A stretch of 48,305 nucleotides of DNA, taken from positions 1 to 48,305 of IMG/VR virus record IMGVR_UViG_3300046736_000012. One strand, given 5' to 3'. Each line of letters opens with the position of its first letter. Positions within the stretch are counted from its first letter, which is position 1. Positions 2,769 to 48,060 of the stretch are shown piece by piece. The notes under the pieces were generated by a model, which was not told where the DNA came from, did not search any database, and worked only from the letters and a program-made list of their open reading frames with translations. A program made the position numbers and the translations under genes. The DNA comes from a virus.

Positions 2769-2996
2769 GTGGGTATCATAGCCGAGACGATGGCAGAGGT
2801 AGTTGAGCGCACTCAAAATGACGTGGGTGGGCCGGTGACCGAGTTACGCAAGGCCGCAAGTATCCAACTCGTTACAGGTGCGGGTGGTCTGGTGTGGATC
2901 AACGTGGATGGCGTGTTGGCGCTACGCATACAGGTATGTGATACCGTGTATGTGGATACGTCAATGGCTCTGGAAACGGCGCACGTAACGAAATGA
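2769..2996 (+). CDS. Hypothetical early protein, 75 aa
   Basis: Starts with GTG, supported by GGAGGG six bases upstream. The first half is helical (TMAEVVERTQ) and the second beta-rich (IQLVTGAGGLVWINVDG), with periodic valines. No family recognised. The stop overlaps the ATG of the next, much larger gene as ATGA, so both are probably translated together. Confidence 0.65.
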   Translation: MGIIAETMAEVVERTQNDVGGPVTELRKAASIQLVTGAGGLVWINVDGVLALRIQVCDTVYVDTSMALETAHVTK

Positions 2997-4315
2997 CATT
3001 ATCGCTTGCGCTCTTAACCGGTGGTCGCAACCACATCCTGCCGCTGTTGCTGGAAGATGACACGTGGAAGCGTGTAAGGCTCAAGTCGGCGCAAGGCGCG
3101 GCTAGCCTGCTAGTCCAGATAGCCAAGCGTGTGCTACTGGATGAAGCGACAGCGTTGATACTCCCCGACATACAGTACTGGTATCAGGACTTCGTAAAGA
3201 CCAATGGCGAGCGTAATCCGCAAAGTCTGGACCAAGCTATGTCCATTGATTGGGACGAAGCCCACGATGACGGCTTACTAGAACTTTTCGAGCCTTTCAC
3301 CAACGTGTTATCTGCAAGCTGGCTGGCATTTGTCTCGACTGACGCACGCATATGGTTACCGGGCGAGGACGAGAAGCTAGCCAGAAGCTTCGCCAAGGAA
3401 GTATGGAAGCAACTGACTTGGCAACGTAGTGAGAACCAGATTTTAGCAGGCGTGGGCATCGTCGCCGAAGACTTGATGAAGTACGGTGGTGAGATCACGC
3501 TGGACGACCACATGGACGCCTATCAATACGGAACCGTTCCCGAACAGGAGTATAACCCTATGGCAGTAGCAGGCGTGTTGAACAGGATCATGCTGTCGTT
3601 TCCCGATCCCAAGAACTTGGCTGACGACCTGGATATGGTCAGCGACGATGATGACGGGCTGGCGGTAGGGGCAGCGCAAAGACTGGGTATAACCCTAGAC
3701 GATGCCAAGATACTGCGTCAGGCGCGTAGCCAAACAGCAAACGCGTTGGCGTGGTGGCAGAGCGCCATCGAGACGGGTGAAAGCCTAGACGAGGGCAAGG
3801 ACTACAAAGACCTTGAAGGCGTGGCTAACGGGTCAGCCACAGACGAAGACCCGCCCTTCGACACGGGACCGGAACTCCCCACAAACCTCAAACGCGTTGC
3901 TGCGCCGCCATTCGACATGGGACCGGTGCCGCCGCCGCCGCCGCCCCCGCCACAGCGCGCGAGTGGTTCTCCCCCTCCTCCCCCACCTCCTCCCCCGCCA
4001 AACGCGCCTACGGTCAAAACAGGCGCACTCCCGCCTACGAACACAGGGGCAAAGACCAGACGCGCCAAGAACACCGGCACCGCTCCCCCCGGTGCGATCC
4101 CCGTGGACGTGCTGCGCCAGATCAAGGAACACACGGGCTTGAAGGACGAACTCTTGGCGGAAATGCTGGGCTTGTCGCGTCCTACGCTGGCAAACATCAT
4201 GAAGGGTAAGACGTGGTGCGTACCGGGCGAAGACCGGCGTAGGGCAGTAGCTGACATGTTGCATAAGCACATTACGGAGTTACAACAAGCTGCGGACGCA
4301 ATTACTCCCTTGTAG
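2993..4315 (+). CDS. Proline-rich protein with C-terminal helix-turn-helix, 440 aa
   Basis: Three parts are visible. Residues 1-290 are helical and acidic with no recognised domain. Residues 305-345 form a linker with runs of up to ten prolines. Residues 365-425 resemble an XRE/lambda-type helix-turn-helix (LKDELLAEMLGLSRPTLANI). The likely role is DNA binding, such as a regulator or replication initiator, with the proline linker separating it from an effector domain. It is coupled by ATGA to the gene at 2769. Long proline runs usually stall ribosomes and need host EF-P. The helix-turn-helix is a pattern-based call; a specific function cannot be assigned. Confidence 0.75.
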   Translation: MTLSLALLTGGRNHILPLLLEDDTWKRVRLKSAQGAASLLVQIAKRVLLDEATALILPDIQYWYQDFVKTNGERNPQSLDQAMSIDWDEAHDDGLLELFEPFTNVLSASWLAFVSTDARIWLPGEDEKLARSFAKEVWKQLTWQRSENQILAGVGIVAEDLMKYGGEITLDDHMDAYQYGTVPEQEYNPMAVAGVLNRIMLSFPDPKNLADDLDMVSDDDDGLAVGAAQRLGITLDDAKILRQARSQTANALAWWQSAIETGESLDEGKDYKDLEGVANGSATDEDPPFDTGPELPTNLKRVAAPPFDMGPVPPPPPPPPQRASGSPPPPPPPPPPNAPTVKTGALPPTNTGAKTRRAKNTGTAPPGAIPVDVLRQIKEHTGLKDELLAEMLGLSRPTLANIMKGKTWCVPGEDRRRAVADMLHKHITELQQAADAITPL

Positions 4316-18682: not shown

Positions 18683-18963
18683 GCCTCTGCCTCGACAGCC
18701 TCTCTATCCGTCGCTGACTTGTAGTATTTTGGATCTTTTGGTAGTGGTTGCGTCTCGGGCTTCAGCGGTGAAGGAACAATAACAAACTGGCCTTCGTGAT
18801 ACCTGACGATTACTTCGACTAGGCTCGCTGCCGCTGGTGCTGGCTCGTCTTCGGTCGTGACAAATTCGGCCATTGCCAGTGTGTATGCCTCAATTGCCGC
18901 CGGTAGATCGTAGCCGAGTGCCCGATACGTATCGGCATAAACCTCAAGCGCGGCCATTGTCAT
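18679..18963 (-). CDS. Hypothetical protein after the tail fibre, 94 aa
   Basis: Acidic small protein: a helical N-terminal half ([20 protein letters not shown]), then a proline-rich and charged end. It sits between the tail fibre and holin with overlaps on both sides. Small genes in this place are often fibre assembly chaperones, but no family is recognised and that role is only suggested by position. Confidence 0.65.
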
Positions 18964-20891
18964 GGTCCTCCTGTTGCGATCATGTAATTGAGGACGAGCG
19001 TCGGTTGGACGATGTTGTGCGCCGTAGCCGACCCGACGTGAGTTACCCCGGCACGCGCTGCGGCTCCGGCCGCTCTATCGTTAGCGGAATTATTGTCGGG
19101 AACTTCGCCGCCGGTCAGTGTGTGCGCGTCTTCGCCACCCGACCCTGCTAACGCTACTGATCCCATGCCGCCGCTTGCGGCTAAAGTTGTGGTCAACCGG
19201 CCCGCCCCTGCATCAACGCCAGCGACAACACGACCACGCAAGTCGGGAATGCCAAAGGTGCCACTGCCTGACCCGTAAGCCGTACCAATGACTGCGAATA
19301 GTTTGGCGTAAGTCGTTGTGCTGACCAGTTGCCCTTGGCAGAGTAGAAAGCCAGCCGGTGCCGCTGACCCGGCATAAGGGAGAACCACGCCAGCGGGCAT
19401 CTTGGCATCGACAAATGCAGTCGTCGCAATACTCGTATCACTATCGCTTGCCGCTGGGGTGACCGCTCTAGCATCACCTGTGAATATTGGTGCATTAAGC
19501 GGCGCTCTAGAAGTGTCCGTAGGGTGTACGTGGTCACCGCGTGAGTAGCTTGCTGCCGCGCCGGGTGCCGCAGCACCATCCATAACCGGGTTTGTTGCTG
19601 ATGCTGCACTGACAGCCAAGCGTGATGTATCAACAGGGTGTACGTGGTCACCACGTGCGTACGTCACTGCTACGCCCGGTGCTGCCGCACCATCCATTAC
19701 CGGGTTGGCACCTGACGCCGCTGGTAATACCGCTGTGACTTGCGCTGCCGTCTGGTAGCCAGACGGGTTACTAGCTGCATAGCGCGATGTATCGGTGGGA
19801 TGTACGTGATCACCACGTGACCACGTTACCGCCACACCCGGTGCGGCTGCGCCATCCATTATCGGGTTGGCCGCTGATGCTGCCGGGTTGGGTACGATTA
19901 CCGTCCAGCCTAAACCTTGTCGTCCATACTGGTTGGCATCATTCGGTGCCTCTGGCACTGGTCCCGCTGGGCCTGTTGCGCCCGTTGGCCCCGTTGGTCC
20001 AGCTACGCCTTGAATGCCCTGTGCGCCGGTCGCGCCTGTCGGCCCCGGCACTGTACTGGCTGCACCCTGTGCGCCCGTTGCCCCTGTCGGCCCTGTCGGC
20101 CCTGCCGGTCCCGGCACTACGCTCGCCGCGCCCTGCGCGCCGGTCGCGCCGGTTGCCCCTGTTGGACCCGTTGGTCCTGCCGGTCCCGGCACTACGCTCG
20201 CCGCACCCTGTGCGCCGGTCGCGCCTGTCGCGCCTGTCGGCCCCGCTGGACCCGGCACTGTGCTGGCGGCACCCGTCGCCCCTGTCAGCCCTATCGGCCC
20301 CTGCGGGCCTGTCGCGCCTGTCGGCCCCGGCACCACGCTTGCCGCGCCTGTCGCACCTGTCGGCCCTACTGGCCCCTGTGGCCCCGGAACCGTGCTTGCC
20401 GCGCCCGTCGCCCCTGTCGGTCCTACCGGTCCTGTTGGCCCCGGTATGGTGCTGGCGGCACCCGTCGCACCCTGTGGCCCCTGTGGCCCCGCTGGACCCT
20501 GCGGACCCGGCACACCCGGTTCGGCGTCCAGTTGCTGGAACCGCATGATCGTGCGATTAAACTCGTCAACCAGCTTCTGTCTGACGAACGCGTTGTCATA
20601 GTCGAAATCGGTGGTGTAGGGCAGATGACGCGCTACGTAGATGACGTTTGGCCCACTTATGGCTATCTTGGCTAACAGTGAAGCCGTAGGCGTAATGGTG
20701 AAGTTGAACAGGCTACCGTCCAGTGGGAACGCTACTGAGTAGTCCACACCCTGCGTAGCCGGGAACTTGGACGCGCCATACCATACGTATATTTCGCCTG
20801 CCACACCGCTGGTATGAATGCCAACGGTTATCGGCACATTGACTACGATATTCGTAAACTCAAGGGCTACGTCTGTGTCGGATATGCTCAT
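18960..20891 (-). CDS. Collagen-like tail fibre with tail-collar domain, 643 aa
   Basis: Receptor-binding fibre. Residues 1-125 resemble the T7 gp17-type N-terminal attachment domain ([19 protein letters not shown]). Residues 126-315 are Gly-X-Y repeats rich in GPTGATGA, forming a collagen triple helix. Residues 335-470 contain three repeats of the type [11 protein letters not shown]. Residues 490-560 are a phage tail-collar domain ([19 protein letters not shown], then [10 protein letters not shown]). The end ([16 protein letters not shown]) is a typical tip. Collagen repeats are recombination-prone, so length may vary between relatives. Confidence 0.88.
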
Positions 20892-43302: not shown

Positions 43303-43464
43303 AGTGTCAGCTTTACAAATATGTACTATACCTACTTTTTACATTTTTTGTATTTTATGAGTGTTTTGTATTTCGTGGAATTTTAGGGGTTTACAAAGCC
43401 TTCCGAGCAAGCTCGCCGGGTCAAATGAAAAATTTTTCCCCCCACCCCCCTCAATCTCATAAAC

Positions 43465-43488
43465 TGTGACATATTTGTCACACTTTTA
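43465..43488 (+). terminator. Possible terminator or operator after terS
   Basis: Perfect inverted repeat TGTGACA / TGTCACA with a TATT loop, followed by CTTTTAT. The stem is AT-containing and only seven bases long, so termination would be modest. The same sequence could be an operator. Confidence 0.45.
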
Positions 43489-43512
43489 TACTATAGTGTT
43501 GCACATATGTAC

Positions 43513-43528
43513 TTTACAGTACTGTAAA
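43513..43528. promoter_or_regulatory. 16-bp perfect palindrome
   Basis: TTTACAGTACTGTAAA is a perfect palindrome in the AT-rich part of the non-coding region. Its symmetry and length fit a binding site for a dimeric regulator. Confidence 0.5.
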
Positions 43529-43666
43529 CACACCAACAAGGTGTATGCACTCTATGCGTTAGGGTATATCATTCTATGTTACGCGTATCATGGTATATTA
43601 TACCTACACCCTATGTGTGTATGTCATCATACGTATTATGTCATATGTCTTATCACTTATGCAGTG

Positions 43667-43770
43667 AACGCGTTATGCATATGTATGCGCGTAACGCGTT
43701 GTCGCCTTACAAACCTGTAACGCGTTACACGTTTGACAAATGAGACGCGCGTCTCGTTTTGACATTTGTG
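43667..43770 (+). repeat. 26-bp-phased iteron-like array
   Basis: AACGCGTT occurs at 43667, 43693 and 43719, exactly 26 bp apart. A fourth 26-bp step at 43745 has the related ACGCGCGT. TTTGACA also repeats at 26 bp (43732 and 43758). The copy at 43716-43729 sits in a perfect palindrome, TGTAACGCGTTACA, and 43742-43755 is the palindrome GAGACGCGCGTCTC. Regular spacing of bound sites is typical of replication origins and multi-site operators. Confidence 0.6.
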
Positions 43771-43776
43771 TCTCAT

Positions 43777-43788
43777 GCGCGTACGCGC
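43777..43788. repeat. 12-bp GC palindrome
   Basis: GCGCGTACGCGC is a perfect palindrome directly after the phased array and probably belongs to the same regulatory or origin structure. Confidence 0.55.
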
Positions 43789-43819
43789 GTATATGCGCGA
43801 GACGAGGATATCACTTTAC

Positions 43820-44010
43820 AATTTTGCGCCCATGAAACCGGGATAGGCGAATAGCGGCTAGGTGGATGGCGCGCGCGGACTATGGGGCTTGCGCTTAGTC
43901 CGGCAGGATACCGGCTCTTGACCACCATTAAGGGGACGCCGCGCCTTCCTTCATTCATCCTCTTCGAGCCTAGTCTCTTAGGCGAGAAGATTTCGCCAGA
44001 GTCTAGTGCT
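43820..44010 (+). ncRNA. Possible structured RNA
   Basis: Several stems occur in a row: CGGACTA (43876) with TAGTCCG (43896), CCGG with CCGG at about 43900-43915, GCCTA with TAGGC near 43967-43984, and GGCGA with TCGCC near 43982-43998. Base composition is richer in GC than the flanks. No tRNA, tmRNA or riboswitch pattern fits. Strand and function are uncertain. Confidence 0.3.
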
Positions 44011-44078
44011 GCGAATAGGATGGTTTTATACTTGTGGCGCTAAAGCATTGAACCTGAGAAACCTCAATAACCGTGGTC

Positions 44079-44102
44079 AATGGCGTTACTTATCGCCATT
44101 TT
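44079..44102 (+). terminator. Hairpin with T-run
   Basis: AATGGCG (44079-44085) pairs with CGCCATT (44094-44100) over an eight-base loop and is followed by TT. It could be a weak terminator of a transcript from the structured region. Confidence 0.4.
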
Positions 44103-44323
44103 GAACAAGTGTACATTTACTCAATACTGGCAATGGTCCTACTAGCGCATGTATCCTATTGTGCTGGTCGCGTTTAAGTGTATGTAAAATGATACCTTTG
44201 GGAGCATTTAATACGTTTACTTCACAATCTGGTAAAGGGTTACACATTTGTAAGAATGGCTCAATTCCGCCACCAATCCCAACCATTGGGCACATTGTGG
44301 CAAGTGTACATAAATGTATAGAA

Positions 44324-44345
44324 AAATGGCGTCAATTCATAAACC
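44324..44345 (+). repeat. 22-bp dispersed repeat, copy 1
   Basis: Matches 44441-44462 at 18 of 22 positions (AAATGGCG, CAA, TC, TAA and CC conserved in order). Confidence 0.55.
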
Positions 44346-44440
44346 GTGGTCCAATTTCATCAATGATATCAATACCCTTTCCATAGATGTCCGTAGGACG
44401 CGTTAAAGTAGAGTGCCAACTCAACCGTTTTTCCGTTCAT

Positions 44441-44462
44441 AAATGGCGGCAAATCGTAAGCC
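44441..44462 (+). repeat. 22-bp dispersed repeat, copy 2
   Basis: Partner of 44324-44345, 117 bases downstream on the same strand. It leads directly into the cruciform at 44462. Confidence 0.55.
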
Positions 44463-44520
44463 ATAAACTATCTCATATACCATCAAAGTCATAATATGAC
44501 TTCACTTGGCATAGTTTATG
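44462..44520. promoter_or_regulatory. Nested cruciform upstream of the DUF3150-MoxR-VWA module
   Basis: CATAAACTAT (44462-44471) and ATAGTTTATG (44511-44520) form a perfect 10-bp outer inverted repeat. Inside, AAGTCATA (44486-44493) and TATGACTT (44495-44502) form an 8-bp inner one around a single A. It lies about 135 bases before the first gene of the module and is a candidate operator. Confidence 0.55.
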
Positions 44521-44640
44521 CACTTACGCGGGCGCATGGCGCAAGCGCGTTCACCATTCCGCGCACTTGTTTATTGATTGTTGCCATGCCATATTGGTGG
44601 TCCGGTTCTACCCGGTCGGCGCAAGCCGTTCACACCAAAC

Positions 44641-44652
44641 CCTAGGGGATAT
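44641..44652 (+). promoter_or_regulatory. Shared translation leader, copy 1
   Basis: CCTAGGGGATAT ends four bases before the ATG at 44656 and carries an AGGGGA ribosome binding site. The same leader recurs at 45639 and 46828. Confidence 0.75.
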
Positions 44653-44655
44653 CCA

Positions 44656-45576
44656 ATGCTAGCCAATCACTCTCACATTCATTCCGTTGCCATGTTGGCG
44701 GACTTCCACGCGTCACAATGGACGGCGAGGAAAATTGACAAGCCGGAAAGCGATAAGGTCCGTTCCGACAATGCCGTGACGGACGCCAAGGCCGCGCATG
44801 TTTCGAAAAAGCTGGTCAAGAGTGATGAGCTGGACGCAATCGCCACACTCGTCGGCAAGGCGCGCGCTTTCCATAAGCGCATGACCAGCCCGTGGTCGCA
44901 GGAAGGCGCGCGCATTCTGTCTGTCACCAACTACCGTCCGTATCATGACGGCATCTTCGATGAAGACGGCAAACAGATTGAATGGGGGATGGATCAATAC
45001 GAAGCTGAATTCGAACGGCTCGTGCCAATCTTCGTCAACGCGTACCCTGATATCCGCGACAACGCGCAAAGCGTATTGGGCGGGCTATTCAAAATAAGCG
45101 ACTATCCGCAACCATCCCGCATCGCGGCTAAGTTTGCTTGGAATTCAAAAATATTCGGCTTGCCCAACGAAGCGGACTTCCGTTGCGACATAGGCGACGA
45201 AGAGATTGCACGCGTACGTTCGCAAATCACAAGCGAAGTGAATGAACGCGTGTCACTGGCAACGGCGGATATCTTCGAGCGCATTCACAGTGTGATTGCC
45301 CCGCTTGCCGAAAAACTTGACGCGTATCAGCCCGATAAGACGGGCAAGGATAAGGGTACATTCCGCGACAGCGCATTAGAGAACGTCGCGGAATTGGTTG
45401 ACCTGATACCCGGCTTGAACTTCACAGGCGACAAGCGCGTTGCGGACTTGTGCGCGGCAATGGCGGACCTTGTTAAGCCGGGACCGCAGGCAATGCGTAC
45501 GGATAACCGGCTTAGGTCCGAGACTGTCGCAAAGGCGAAGGCAATGGTCGAAGCGGTATCAGACTTTATGGCCTAG
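44656..45576 (+). CDS. DUF3150-like protein, 306 aa
   Basis: First gene of the right-end module. The sequence has the character of DUF3150 proteins: a charged N-terminus with KLVKSDELDAIATLVGKARA, a central YDKFG-like aromatic region (QYEAEFERLVPIFVNAYPDI), IGDEEIARVRSQITSEVNER and a helical end (RLRSETVAKAKAMVEAVSDF). DUF3150 genes are known beside MoxR-type ATPase and VWA genes in phages and mobile elements. It may be a substrate or adaptor for that machine. The ATG at 44656 is fixed by the AGGGGA leader. Confidence 0.72.
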   Translation: MLANHSHIHSVAMLADFHASQWTARKIDKPESDKVRSDNAVTDAKAAHVSKKLVKSDELDAIATLVGKARAFHKRMTSPWSQEGARILSVTNYRPYHDGIFDEDGKQIEWGMDQYEAEFERLVPIFVNAYPDIRDNAQSVLGGLFKISDYPQPSRIAAKFAWNSKIFGLPNEADFRCDIGDEEIARVRSQITSEVNERVSLATADIFERIHSVIAPLAEKLDAYQPDKTGKDKGTFRDSALENVAELVDLIPGLNFTGDKRVADLCAAMADLVKPGPQAMRTDNRLRSETVAKAKAMVEAVSDFMA

Positions 45577-45583
45577 TTGATTA

Positions 45584-45623
45584 GGCTAGTTGACCACGGT
45601 TCGCCGTGGTCAATCGCCTAGCC
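45584..45623 (+). other. TTCG-capped intergenic hairpin 1
   Basis: Ten-base perfect stem TTGACCACGG / CCGTGGTCAA with a TTCG tetraloop, plus an outer stem GGCTAG / CTAGCC. UUCG caps are exceptionally stable in RNA. No T-run follows, so it is more likely an mRNA-stability or processing element than a terminator. Confidence 0.7.
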
Positions 45624-45638
45624 AATGGTGGTCTAGAA

Positions 45639-45650
45639 CCTAGGGGAATA
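45639..45650 (+). promoter_or_regulatory. Shared translation leader, copy 2
   Basis: CCTAGGGGAATA before the ATG at 45656, nearly identical to 44641 and identical to 46828. Confidence 0.75.
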
Positions 45651-45655
45651 CGGTT

Positions 45656-46756
45656 ATGGAAATCACTCTTAAGCAGGCTTTCGATGACTTGCGCGTTGGT
45701 CTTTCGATCAATTCACGCCAATTGATCCTTGGTGCCGTTGGCGTTGGCAAGACTGACGTGGCGCGGCAAGTGGCTGACGCGTGGGCAATGCAAGACTATG
45801 GTCTTAACAAATGCCCGTTGATTGACAGGCGCGTCTCGCAGTTCCTTGGCTATGATACGTCAATGCCGATGCCCAACACCGCGACAGGCTTAATTGATAC
45901 ATATCAGCCGGGGTGGTTGCCACGCGTAGAGCGTGACGGTCCCGTTGGTGTGTTGCTTCTTGACGAATATACGGACGGCAAGCCTGATACGTTGGCGGCA
46001 ATCAATCAGCTAGTGCTGGAAGGCAAACTAGGGGATTACGTATTCCCTGATGAAACGAGCAATCCAGACCATCATTGGCGGATTATCGGCACTGGTAACC
46101 GGGCAGTGGACAAGGCACATGCTCAAAAGATTAGCCGCGCGGCGTCCAATCGCTGGAATATTCTCAACATCTGCATTGACGTTGACGCGTGGATTGAATG
46201 GGCAATTGGCGCGGGAATAGACGCCGCATTGGTCGCGTACGTTCAAACCACGGTTATTGCGCTTAAGGGGATGAAAGACCGTGACGTTAGCGAGGCAATC
46301 CACCAATACCCCGCAAGCGGGTCTGATGCCGTTGCGTTCAAGACGCCGCGTTCACTGGCAAGGTGCGACCGTTACCTGAAAATGCCCGTGGTTCCGGCTG
46401 ACGCGCAATTGCGGCGTCTCTTCTCGCAGAACATAGGCGACAACGCCGCGCATGACCTTATGACGTTCCTCGCGTCATATCGCCTTGCGCCTAGCATCAC
46501 AGACATATTGAAAGACCCGGCAGGCTATGCCGTACCACGCGAACCGTCCGTAAACTTCGCAATTAGCGTTGGGCTGGTGTCACGGCTGACGTTGACCAAT
46601 GTCGCTACTGTGAACAAGTTTGTGGCGCGCATGGGCGCAAACTACCAAGCCGCATTCTGGAATAACGCGTTGGCCAAGGATAAGGCATTTGAGAAAACGC
46701 CCGAACATGTTGAATACCTGATTGCGACACGCGACGAAGATAGGGACGCCGCATAG
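45656..46756 (+). CDS. MoxR-family AAA+ ATPase, 366 aa
   Basis: AAA+ chaperone-type ATPase. Walker A is GAVGVGKTD (residues 26-34), Walker B LLLDEYTDG (about 99), sensor 1 GTGNR (about 145), and KISRAASNRW carries an arginine-finger-like residue. MoxR ATPases form hexamers that work with VWA proteins to remodel targets or insert metals, as in RavA-ViaA, NorQ-NorD and CobS-CobT. The adjacent gene encodes just such a VWA partner, so the two very likely form a complex. Confidence 0.87.
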   Translation: MEITLKQAFDDLRVGLSINSRQLILGAVGVGKTDVARQVADAWAMQDYGLNKCPLIDRRVSQFLGYDTSMPMPNTATGLIDTYQPGWLPRVERDGPVGVLLLDEYTDGKPDTLAAINQLVLEGKLGDYVFPDETSNPDHHWRIIGTGNRAVDKAHAQKISRAASNRWNILNICIDVDAWIEWAIGAGIDAALVAYVQTTVIALKGMKDRDVSEAIHQYPASGSDAVAFKTPRSLARCDRYLKMPVVPADAQLRRLFSQNIGDNAAHDLMTFLASYRLAPSITDILKDPAGYAVPREPSVNFAISVGLVSRLTLTNVATVNKFVARMGANYQAAFWNNALAKDKAFEKTPEHVEYLIATRDEDRDAA

Positions 46757-46765
46757 GCTAATCCC

Positions 46766-46808
46766 GCTTGCATCATGGCCTGTCATTCGTGACAGGCCAT
46801 TAGCAAGC
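46766..46808 (+). other. TTCG-capped intergenic hairpin 2
   Basis: Eleven-base perfect stem (ATGGCCTGTCA / TGACAGGCCAT, 46775-46800) with a TTCG tetraloop, enclosed by GCTTGC / GCAAGC. It has the same design as 45584-45623, in the next intergenic gap of the operon. Confidence 0.7.
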
Positions 46809-46827
46809 TGGAATGGTCCAGTTTGAT

Positions 46828-46839
46828 CCTAGGGGAATA
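46828..46839 (+). promoter_or_regulatory. Shared translation leader, copy 3
   Basis: CCTAGGGGAATA, identical to 45639-45650, six bases before the ATG at 46846. Confidence 0.75.
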
Positions 46840-46845
46840 GAAAAC

Positions 46846-48060
46846 ATGCTCTGGTCTAAAATCACAAACCCGCAAAAGCGCGTGGAACGCGCAATGCGTA
46901 AACTGTTTAAGGATAGGAACGCGCAATTTTGGGGAATAATCGGCCTAGGAATGGACCTAGTACAAGCTGGTGGCGCGTGCATTTACAGTGAAGCTGACGT
47001 GCCAACCATGGCAACGGATAGCATCAGGATTTATTTCAACGGTCCGTACGTCATGACGCTAAGTGAAGCTGAATGCATGGGCGTTCTAGCGCATGAAGTA
47101 GACCACCCCGCAATGAGGCATAAACAGCGGCTTGCCTATTTGAACGACCATGAATTGGCGAATATGGCGGCAGACTACGAAGAAAACATGGATTTAACTA
47201 ATGCTGGTCTGACGCTTCCTGAAAACGTGTTGCTAGATTGGCGTTTTCAGGGGATGGCGGCAGAGCAAATAGCTAACGTGTTGCGTAGAGAGAACGAACA
47301 AGCCACCAAGGAAGGCAAGGATAAGCCACACCAGCCACAATCGGGACAGTGGCTAGAACCAACTCATGAAGACGGTTCAGACTACACCAGCGAAGAAAAA
47401 GCCGAATTGGCCGAACAATGGGAAACCAAGGTCAATCAGGCATTAGGCGCGGCTAGGAAAGCAGGCACATTCGGCGGTAAAGACGTTCCTAGTGAACTGC
47501 AAAGCGTAAAGAATACGCGTGGTCACACTGCGTTGGTGGATTGGAGACAGCCGTTGCGCGCTTTCATAGACCAGCTTGGCAGCATCGAAAGCACATGGTC
47601 GCGCTTGTCACGTCGCGGTATGGCCCACGGCATGATCTGGCAAGGCGAGGAACCAGTAAGGCCAAGCCTGATTGGCTGGTTTATTGACGTTAGCGGGTCA
47701 ATGGACACGACCAAAAATCGGCAGGCATTGGAAGAGGCGCAATCGGCTTTAGACGATATGGCCTGCGATGCAATTGAACTGGTCTACGTAGACACTAGGG
47801 TTAAGTCTACGGAACGCTATGAGACAGGCCAAGCCATCGAATTGAAAGACGGCACTGGTGGCGGAACGGACTTTGCCAGCGCAATGGACTACGCCAGCGA
47901 ACAGGAATACGCCGCAATAGTTTTCGTTACAGATGGTCACACCACTAGTTGGGGCATAGACCCTAGCATTCCTGTCCTATGGGCAATCACGGGTTCGCAG
48001 GCTGATACGGATAGGCTGACGCCACCATTCGGCGATAAACTCTGTCTCTACACCAGCTAG
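46846..48060 (+). CDS. Metallopeptidase-VWA fusion protein (DUF2201-like), 404 aa
   Basis: The N-terminal domain has a zinc-peptidase motif, HEVDH (residues 83-87), then a conserved MAADYEENMDL segment with a probable third ligand at D110, as in the DUF2201 N-terminal family. Residues 150-225 are a charged linker. The C-terminal VWA domain has an intact MIDAS: DVSGS (281-285), T341 in GGGTDF and D363 in VTDGH. It should bind a divalent ion and partner the MoxR ATPase. The start at 46846 is set by the AGGGGA leader. Confidence 0.87.
   Translation: MLWSKITNPQKRVERAMRKLFKDRNAQFWGIIGLGMDLVQAGGACIYSEADVPTMATDSIRIYFNGPYVMTLSEAECMGVLAHEVDHPAMRHKQRLAYLNDHELANMAADYEENMDLTNAGLTLPENVLLDWRFQGMAAEQIANVLRRENEQATKEGKDKPHQPQSGQWLEPTHEDGSDYTSEEKAELAEQWETKVNQALGAARKAGTFGGKDVPSELQSVKNTRGHTALVDWRQPLRAFIDQLGSIESTWSRLSRRGMAHGMIWQGEEPVRPSLIGWFIDVSGSMDTTKNRQALEEAQSALDDMACDAIELVYVDTRVKSTERYETGQAIELKDGTGGGTDFASAMDYASEQEYAAIVFVTDGHTTSWGIDPSIPVLWAITGSQADTDRLTPPFGDKLCLYTS

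What the first reader, a model, noticed from the sequence alone, without database searches (positions are those of the whole stretch)
44656..48060. Phage-borne MoxR ATPase / metallopeptidase-VWA / DUF3150 module
Three consecutive genes form what looks like a complete AAA+ machine: an intact MoxR-type ATPase, a protein joining an HExxH metallopeptidase-like domain to a VWA domain with an intact MIDAS, and a DUF3150-like partner. Cellular MoxR-VWA pairs activate or remodel enzymes or insert metals, and related pairs occur in conflict systems. A phage of 48 kb devoting 7% of its genome to this suggests a real benefit, such as modifying a host complex, disarming a defence, or maturing a phage protein. 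Motifs are seen directly; the role is inference.
Basis: partly seen in the sequence, partly recalled or inferred. Interest (0 to 1): 0.82.

Follow-up and report, generated by a model that had tools for sequence, protein, structure and literature searches.

The report
Phage three-gene MoxR–VWA–DUF3150 ATPase machine
This phage carries three side-by-side genes for what looks like an ATP-driven protein-remodelling machine, and the same trio (not only the already known pair) recurs in well over a hundred sampled uncultured phages and, in divergent form, beside the recombination genes of conjugative plasmids, so the unstudied protein DUF3150 is very probably its third working part.

Summary
The window is a complete podovirus genome (identical 125-bp ends) with intact, same-strand DUF3150, MoxR and HExxH-plus-VWA genes at 44656–48060. 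The MoxR/metallopeptidase-VWA pair is already known: it is N4 gp24/gp25, core in N4-like phages, and was described in jumbo phages in 2021. DUF3150 as third partner appears undescribed: no paper in the searchable library names it. Anchored on DUF3150, 79 of 80 IMG/VR loci also hold MoxR and VWA, and the 80th is cut by its contig end. Anchored on VWA or MoxR of two triplet clades, 33/33 and 31/31 uncut loci hold all three. Five of six gene orders occur, so linkage survives reshuffling. All three genes are under purifying selection. Profile comparison ties each part to a divergent MoxR–DUF3150–CobT-like-VWA set on conjugative plasmids, usually directly behind ssb–recT/bet–exo. The predicted DUF3150 fold is confident and matches nothing in the PDB. 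In the phages the trio opens the early/replication arm, away from structural genes. Best reading: a RavA–ViaA/NorQD/midasin-like machine with DUF3150 as adaptor, acting on a protein complex of DNA replication or recombination. The machine is well supported; its target is inferred. New variant of a known kind.

The parts
44656..45576 (+). DUF3150-like gene (306 aa), predicted adaptor/third component
   Evidence: AlphaFold pLDDT 92.5, pTM 0.86; no PDB fold match at E<=0.001; matches other phage DUF3150 models in BFVD
45656..46756 (+). MoxR-type AAA+ ATPase gene (366 aa), PHROG 1297
   Evidence: best solved-structure relatives by profile: midasin, also CobS and CbbQ-type ATPases
46813..48060 (+). 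Zincin-like (HExxH, DUF2201_N) + VWA (DUF2201) gene, PHROG 1314; likely true start ATG 46846
   Evidence: model pLDDT 87.3; VWA domains, including a chain of the NorQD complex 9qhe, among best PDB matches
45577..45655 (+). DUF3150-MoxR gap with a strong stem-loop (GGCTAG TTGACCACGG TTCG CCGTGGTCAA ... CTAGCC)
   Evidence: z -3.6; covarying with relatives' hairpins, 9 of 16 pairs with double compensatory changes
46757..46845 (+). MoxR-VWA gap with a second stem-loop of the same type
   Evidence: z -5.1
44641..44649 (+). CCTAGGGGA element before DUF3150 start (ATG 44656)
   Evidence: 4 in window vs 0.15 expected, three of them directly before the three triplet starts
45639..45647 (+). CCTAGGGGA element before MoxR start (ATG 45656)
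46828..46836 (+). CCTAGGGGA element before likely VWA start (ATG 46846)
   Evidence: sequence
43303..44655 (+). 1.35-kb gene-poor leader upstream of the triplet (head of the rightward early arm)
   Evidence: No convincing ORF, no Rfam match, no promoter enrichment by sigma-70 consensus

Best explanation
The three genes encode one working unit. A MoxR AAA+ ring (inferred to be a hexamer, as in its kin) is coupled by a VWA/MIDAS protein with a zincin-like domain to a client that DUF3150, an alpha/beta protein with long helices, recognises or holds. ATP hydrolysis remodels or extracts a subunit of a target complex, and the HExxH domain may clip it or help bind it. The unit is made early, and the target is most likely a protein assembly on DNA during phage replication or recombination (host or phage). 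Shown: the triplet, its catalytic and MIDAS residues, its co-retention through gene-order changes, purifying selection, the homologous plasmid triplet behind ssb-recT-exo, and the position at the head of the early/replication arm. Inferred: complex formation, DUF3150 as adaptor, peptidase activity, early timing and the DNA-related target.
For: Co-occurrence 79/80, 33/33 and 31/31. Five gene orders, at least 5 order changes on the VWA tree. 78/78 triplets on one strand, median span 3.5 kb. dN/dS about 0.05-0.25 for each gene. Zinc and MIDAS residues nearly invariant. Plasmid triplets: IncC MoxR...ssb-bet-exo-DUF3150-VWA and contiguous ssb-RecT-exo-MoxR-DUF3150-VWA in Providencia and Citrobacter, RecT-exo-MoxR-DUF3150-VWA in Proteus. 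Phage-plasmid homology of all three parts: E 5e-8, 1.7e-5, 6e-10. Phage triplets lie upstream of DNA polymerase A (16 of 46 DUF3150 groups) and PD-(D/E)XK nuclease (10 of 46) on the same strand. This window also has an exonuclease, a gp2.5-like SSB/annealing protein and a polymerase downstream. MoxR-VWA pairs act as remodelling machines: RavA-ViaA (PMC3893208, PMC10585395; abstracts), CbbQO (PMC4660213; abstract).
Against: No interaction or activity was measured. Early operons of phages hold replication genes anyway, so the neighbourhood in phages is weak evidence for a DNA target. N4, Presley, S-TIM5, PA5oct, FV3, CRP-7 and phiFa keep the pair without any detectable DUF3150, so DUF3150 is not needed by every such ATPase. 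In N4-like roseophage RPP1, virion proteins are encoded near the gp24/25 homologues (PMC4193335).
Confidence: 0.42

Rival explanations
1. Virion-maturation chaperone/protease: the trio assembles or trims a structural protein, as proposed for the MoxR-metallopeptidase-VWA pair of jumbo phages and by analogy with Acidianus two-tailed virus.
For: Published proposal (PMC7824862). In RPP1 four virion proteins are encoded near the gp24/25 homologues, a second structural module expressed mid-phase (PMC4193335). The HExxH site is intact.
Against: Here the trio lies on the opposite strand from the structural block at the head of the replication arm; N4 gp24/25 are middle genes (PMC4193335). Conjugative plasmids, which make no virions, carry the homologous trio.
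Confidence: 0.17
2. Counter-defence or host-takeover machine: remodels or inactivates a host complex, e.g. a nuclease or defence assembly, early in infection.
For: Early-arm position; shared by phages and conjugative plasmids, both of which meet host defence on entry; MoxR-vWA ternary systems are known in conflict settings (PMC7159879).
Against: No PADLOC match. Near-universal retention within the two scanned clades is unlike patchy anti-defence genes. The MoxR-vWA conflict systems have VMAP or iSTAND as third part and variable C-terminal effectors, which are absent here.
Confidence: 0.25
3. Metal insertion/chelatase-like or enzyme-activation unit (CobS-CobT- or NorQ-NorD-like) that boosts a host metalloenzyme.
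For: Plasmid MoxR proteins carry a CbbQ C-terminal domain and the plasmid VWA proteins match CobT; a chain of NorQD is among the VWA fold matches.
Against: No CobN-like or metalloenzyme gene was recognised among the window genes scanned; the porphyrin-biosynthesis PHROG is a far weaker match (2.5e-5 vs 2e-49); no metal or cofactor gene is among the conserved neighbours identified.
Confidence: 0.06
4. Chance neighbourhood or fragments of bacterial genes mis-sorted as viral.
For: Most loci are metagenomic contigs.
Against: Terminase and head-tail connector genes among the recurrent neighbours; complete genome here; one locus in 84,980 species genomes with the phage-type motif scan; linkage far beyond chance.
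Confidence: 0.01

Closest known systems
N4 gp24/gp25 and the Schitoviridae core pair (PHROG 1297 + 1314)
   Same: MoxR ATPase plus zincin-VWA protein, same families; core genes, middle-transcribed in N4 (PMC4193335)
   Different: No DUF3150 anywhere in N4 or Presley; 20-30% identity
MoxR-metallopeptidase-vWA pair of group 2.2 jumbo phages (Iyer et al. 2021, PMC7824862)
   Same: Same two-gene architecture
   Different: No third component described; function proposed as virion assembly
Conjugative-plasmid MoxR-DUF3150-CobT-like VWA cluster (IncC and relatives)
   Same: All three parts homologous by profile comparison; HExxH before the VWA also invariant
   Different: MoxR is CbbQ-type, VWA is CobT-like and longer; usually sits in the ssb-recT/bet-exo operon
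vWA-MoxR ternary conflict systems (VMAP, iSTAND; PMC7159879)
   Same: MoxR + VWA + a third protein
   Different: Third protein is DUF3150, not VMAP or iSTAND; gene order is not fixed; no variable effectors
RavA-ViaA, CbbQ-CbbO, NorQ-NorD, midasin
   Same: MoxR-clade AAA+ working with a MIDAS/VWA partner; midasin is the top profile match of this ATPase in the PDB
   Different: Cellular; to my knowledge none has DUF3150 or this zincin domain

Membership tests
MoxR-type AAA+ ATPase | Walker A/B, sensor 1, arginine residues of a AAA_5/MoxR ATPase | tested here: met
   Invariant G29, G31, K32, D103, E104, N148, R166, R232 in A2; PHROG 1297 2e-49; AAA_5 E=8e-4 but under Pfam cut-off
MoxR-type AAA+ ATPase | Gene coupling with a VWA partner | tested here: met
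DUF2201 metallopeptidase-VWA (PHROG 1314) | DUF2201_N with HExxH and C-terminal VWA with MIDAS | tested here: met
DUF2201 metallopeptidase-VWA (PHROG 1314) | Proteolytic activity | not testable with these tools
   Zinc-site residues nearly invariant only
DUF3150 (PF11348) | Pfam gathering score | tested here: inconclusive
   Window protein 14.4 bits vs 24.9; 43% identical relative 35.7 bits
DUF3150 (PF11348) | Profile-level homology to plasmid DUF3150 | tested here: met
   hhalign 94.8%, E=5e-8 over 199 columns
VMAP / iSTAND ternary conflict system | VMAP or iSTAND third protein | tested here: not met
   Third protein is DUF3150; no VMAP or STAND match to it in Pfam
VMAP / iSTAND ternary conflict system | Fixed order VMAP-MoxR-vWA | tested here: not met
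   Five gene orders
Cobaltochelatase CobNST | CobN subunit present | tested here: not met
   No CobN match among the window proteins scanned, which include every long ORF
Known anti-phage defence system | PADLOC model match | tested here: not met
   Only matches with E above 0.01

The most novel reading that the evidence does not exclude
MoxR-zincin/VWA-DUF3150 is a distinct ternary AAA+ machine specific to mobile elements, shared by tailed phages and conjugative plasmids, that remodels nucleoprotein complexes during single-strand-annealing recombination or replication; DUF3150 is its substrate adaptor with a fold not yet solved.
Probability: 0.3. Interest if true: 0.85.

Novelty: new variant of a known kind. 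Interest (0 to 1): 0.6.

Why it matters
DUF3150 has been a nameless family, and the searchable library holds no paper on it. Showing that in phages it practically always travels with a MoxR ATPase and a zincin-VWA protein, across at least five gene orders, and that over a thousand sequenced plasmids, mostly conjugative and including IncC multidrug-resistance plasmids, carry DUF3150 relatives (with MoxR and VWA genes beside them in most sampled cases, usually behind recombination genes), turns an unknown into a testable three-protein machine. It bears on a long-open question: what N4 gp24/gp25 and their hundreds of phage relatives do.

Tried and rejected
Defence-system membership (nothing). Known RNA elements (none). 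Sigma-70 promoters and terminators: no enrichment. A fold match of DUF3150 to Mycobacterium phage Dylan S5YZA3 (probability 0.99 but E=0.013), taken to be gp94 by its length of 275 aa: not supported by profile comparison and its neighbouring ATPase is a classical AAA, not MoxR. Searching cellular genomes with the phage DUF3150 motif: a single locus in 84,980 species, so cellular DUF3150 was sought by Pfam model instead: 9 of 398 genomes over cut-off, one of them that same locus. Diverse VWA alignments were unusable for pattern scans, so two clade-level alignments were used; the reciprocal test therefore speaks for those clades, not for all MoxR–VWA phages. Mirror-tree correlation is high (0.91–0.95 Pearson) but was not controlled against an unrelated phage gene, so I give it little weight.
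Full report
WHAT IS THERE. The window ends in an identical 125-bp direct repeat 48,180 bp apart, so it is a complete, circularly closed phage genome. Structural genes (head–tail adaptor/portal, major head protein, tail proteins, collagen-like tail fibre, endolysin) occupy the minus strand from about 17.9 to 40.8 kb. Terminase genes lie at 40.6–43.3 kb on the plus strand. RuvC, an SNF2-type helicase, a PD-(D/E)XK exonuclease, a gp2.5-like single-strand-binding/annealing protein, DNA polymerase and a primase-helicase lie on the plus strand at 6.3–16.3 kb. It is a podovirus-type genome. Between terminase and the rightward early arm stand a 1.35-kb gene-poor leader and then the trio at 44656–48060, so the trio opens the early/replication arm.

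All three genes are intact. The VWA protein passes both Pfam cut-offs and keeps the zincin (HEVDH) and MIDAS residues that are nearly invariant in 33 relatives. The MoxR protein keeps every catalytic residue though Pfam sees it only weakly. DUF3150 is below the Pfam cut-off on its own, but its 43% identical relative passes. A CCTAGGGGA ribosome-binding element precedes the start of each of the three genes (4 in the genome, 0.15 expected). It shows that the VWA gene most likely starts at ATG 46846, not 46813.

THE PAIR IS KNOWN. tblastn finds the VWA protein in 465 and the MoxR protein in 457 of 50,697 phage records. They are N4 gp24 and gp25, listed among the core genes of N4-like phages and described as middle transcripts (PMC4193335). 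Iyer et al. 2021 described the MoxR–metallopeptidase-vWA pair in jumbo phages and proposed virion assembly (PMC7824862). The PHROG name of the VWA family, 'HNH endonuclease', is contradicted by the domain content.

THE TRIO IS NOT. No paper in the searchable library mentions DUF3150 (open-licence papers only). In cultured phages DUF3150 occurs in one 65,014-bp cyanophage type, sequenced three times, and PHROGs gave no match to the window protein. In IMG/VR, however, a DUF3150-anchored scan gave 203 loci. Of the 80 held, 79 carry both MoxR and VWA within 8 kb, and the last is cut by its contig end. Scans anchored on VWA or MoxR of two triplet clades gave 33/33 and 31/31 triplets among loci with at least 4 kb on both sides. 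Orders DMV, MDV, MVD, VMD and VDM all occur, always on one strand in the 78 triplets measured, with at least five order changes on the VWA tree. dN/dS is about 0.05–0.25 for each gene. Linkage that survives reshuffling is hard to explain without joint function. Seven pair-only phages have no DUF3150 anywhere in their genomes by the sensitive profile, so DUF3150 is an optional but, where present, strictly coupled partner.

THE PLASMID COUNTERPART. Pfam DUF3150 in bacteria is uncommon (9 of 398 genomes of the phylum over the cut-off) and is common on mobile elements: 1,168 plasmid records, 978 of them conjugative. In IncC plasmid pAM04528 the order is AAA ATPase (MoxR)…ssb–bet–exo–DUF3150–VWA; in Providencia and Citrobacter plasmids it is contiguous ssb–RecT–exo–(small gene)–MoxR–DUF3150–VWA, and in a Proteus plasmid RecT–exo–(small gene)–MoxR–DUF3150–VWA; a Vibrio vulnificus plasmid has MoxR–DUF3150–VWA without RecT/exo in the flank. 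One of these five further plasmids lacked an annotated VWA gene in the flank, and in a Comamonas plasmid the gene after DUF3150 is short and followed by an IS3 transposase. The plasmid MoxR is CbbQ-type and the VWA is CobT-like, but the latter too has an invariant HExxH. Profile–profile comparison links all three parts to the phage ones: DUF3150 5e-8, zincin domain 1.7e-5, MoxR 6e-10.

STRUCTURE. DUF3150 is predicted with pLDDT 92.5 as strands plus long helices. Its best PDB matches are insignificant, while phage DUF3150-type models match at about 1e-9 to 1e-17. The VWA model matches VWA domains including a chain of the NorQD complex 9qhe. The MoxR profile's best solved relative is midasin.

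REGULATION. The two intergenic gaps hold strong stem-loops that are conserved in the nearest relatives with compensatory changes in 9 of 16 pairs. They lack U-tracts, so I read them as RNA processing or translation-control elements (inference).

MECHANISM. Established MoxR–VWA pairs (RavA–ViaA, CbbQO) remodel target complexes. The trio fits that scheme with DUF3150 as the client adaptor and the zincin domain as clipper or clamp. The early-arm position, and above all the plasmid operon with ssb–recT–exo, favour a DNA-related client over virion assembly; plasmids make no virions. Counter-defence cannot be excluded. Complex formation, activity and target are inference.

VERDICT. Real, the pair already known, the third component and the phage–plasmid link apparently new: a new variant of a known kind.

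Noticed in passing
window 45577-45655 and 46757-46845; L013-L016 intergenic gaps: Strong stem-loops (TTGACCA...TGGTCAA core) sit in the gaps of the triplet in this phage and its nearest relatives, with compensatory changes in 9 of 16 base pairs.
   Followed up: partly
window 44641, 45639, 46828: CCTAGGGGA directly before each triplet start codon (expected 0.15 in the genome, found 4); also 2 plus-strand and 1 minus-strand copies in relative L013.
   Followed up: partly
whole window: The palindrome AACGCGTT occurs 22 times against 1.2 expected by dinucleotide shuffles, but close to the 17.5 expected from its 7-mers; also frequent in relatives L013-L015, absent or rare in other triplet phages.
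   Followed up: partly
PHROG 1314; RefSeq phage records such as NC_008720 gp25: The zincin-VWA protein family is labelled 'HNH endonuclease' in PHROGs and in many RefSeq phage entries; its Pfam domains are DUF2201_N and DUF2201, with no HNH match.
   Followed up: yes
window 2993-4315: 440-aa protein with a C-terminal Xre-like helix-turn-helix, recurring about 7 kb downstream of DUF3150 in 4 of 46 DUF3150 groups.
   Followed up: no
window 20017-20509: Collagen-like repeats in the tail-fibre gene 18960-20891.
   Followed up: no
L092 (uncultured Aurantimonas contig): The only phage-type DUF3150 triplet found by motif scan in 84,980 bacterial and archaeal species genomes; probably a prophage or related element, not examined.
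   Followed up: no
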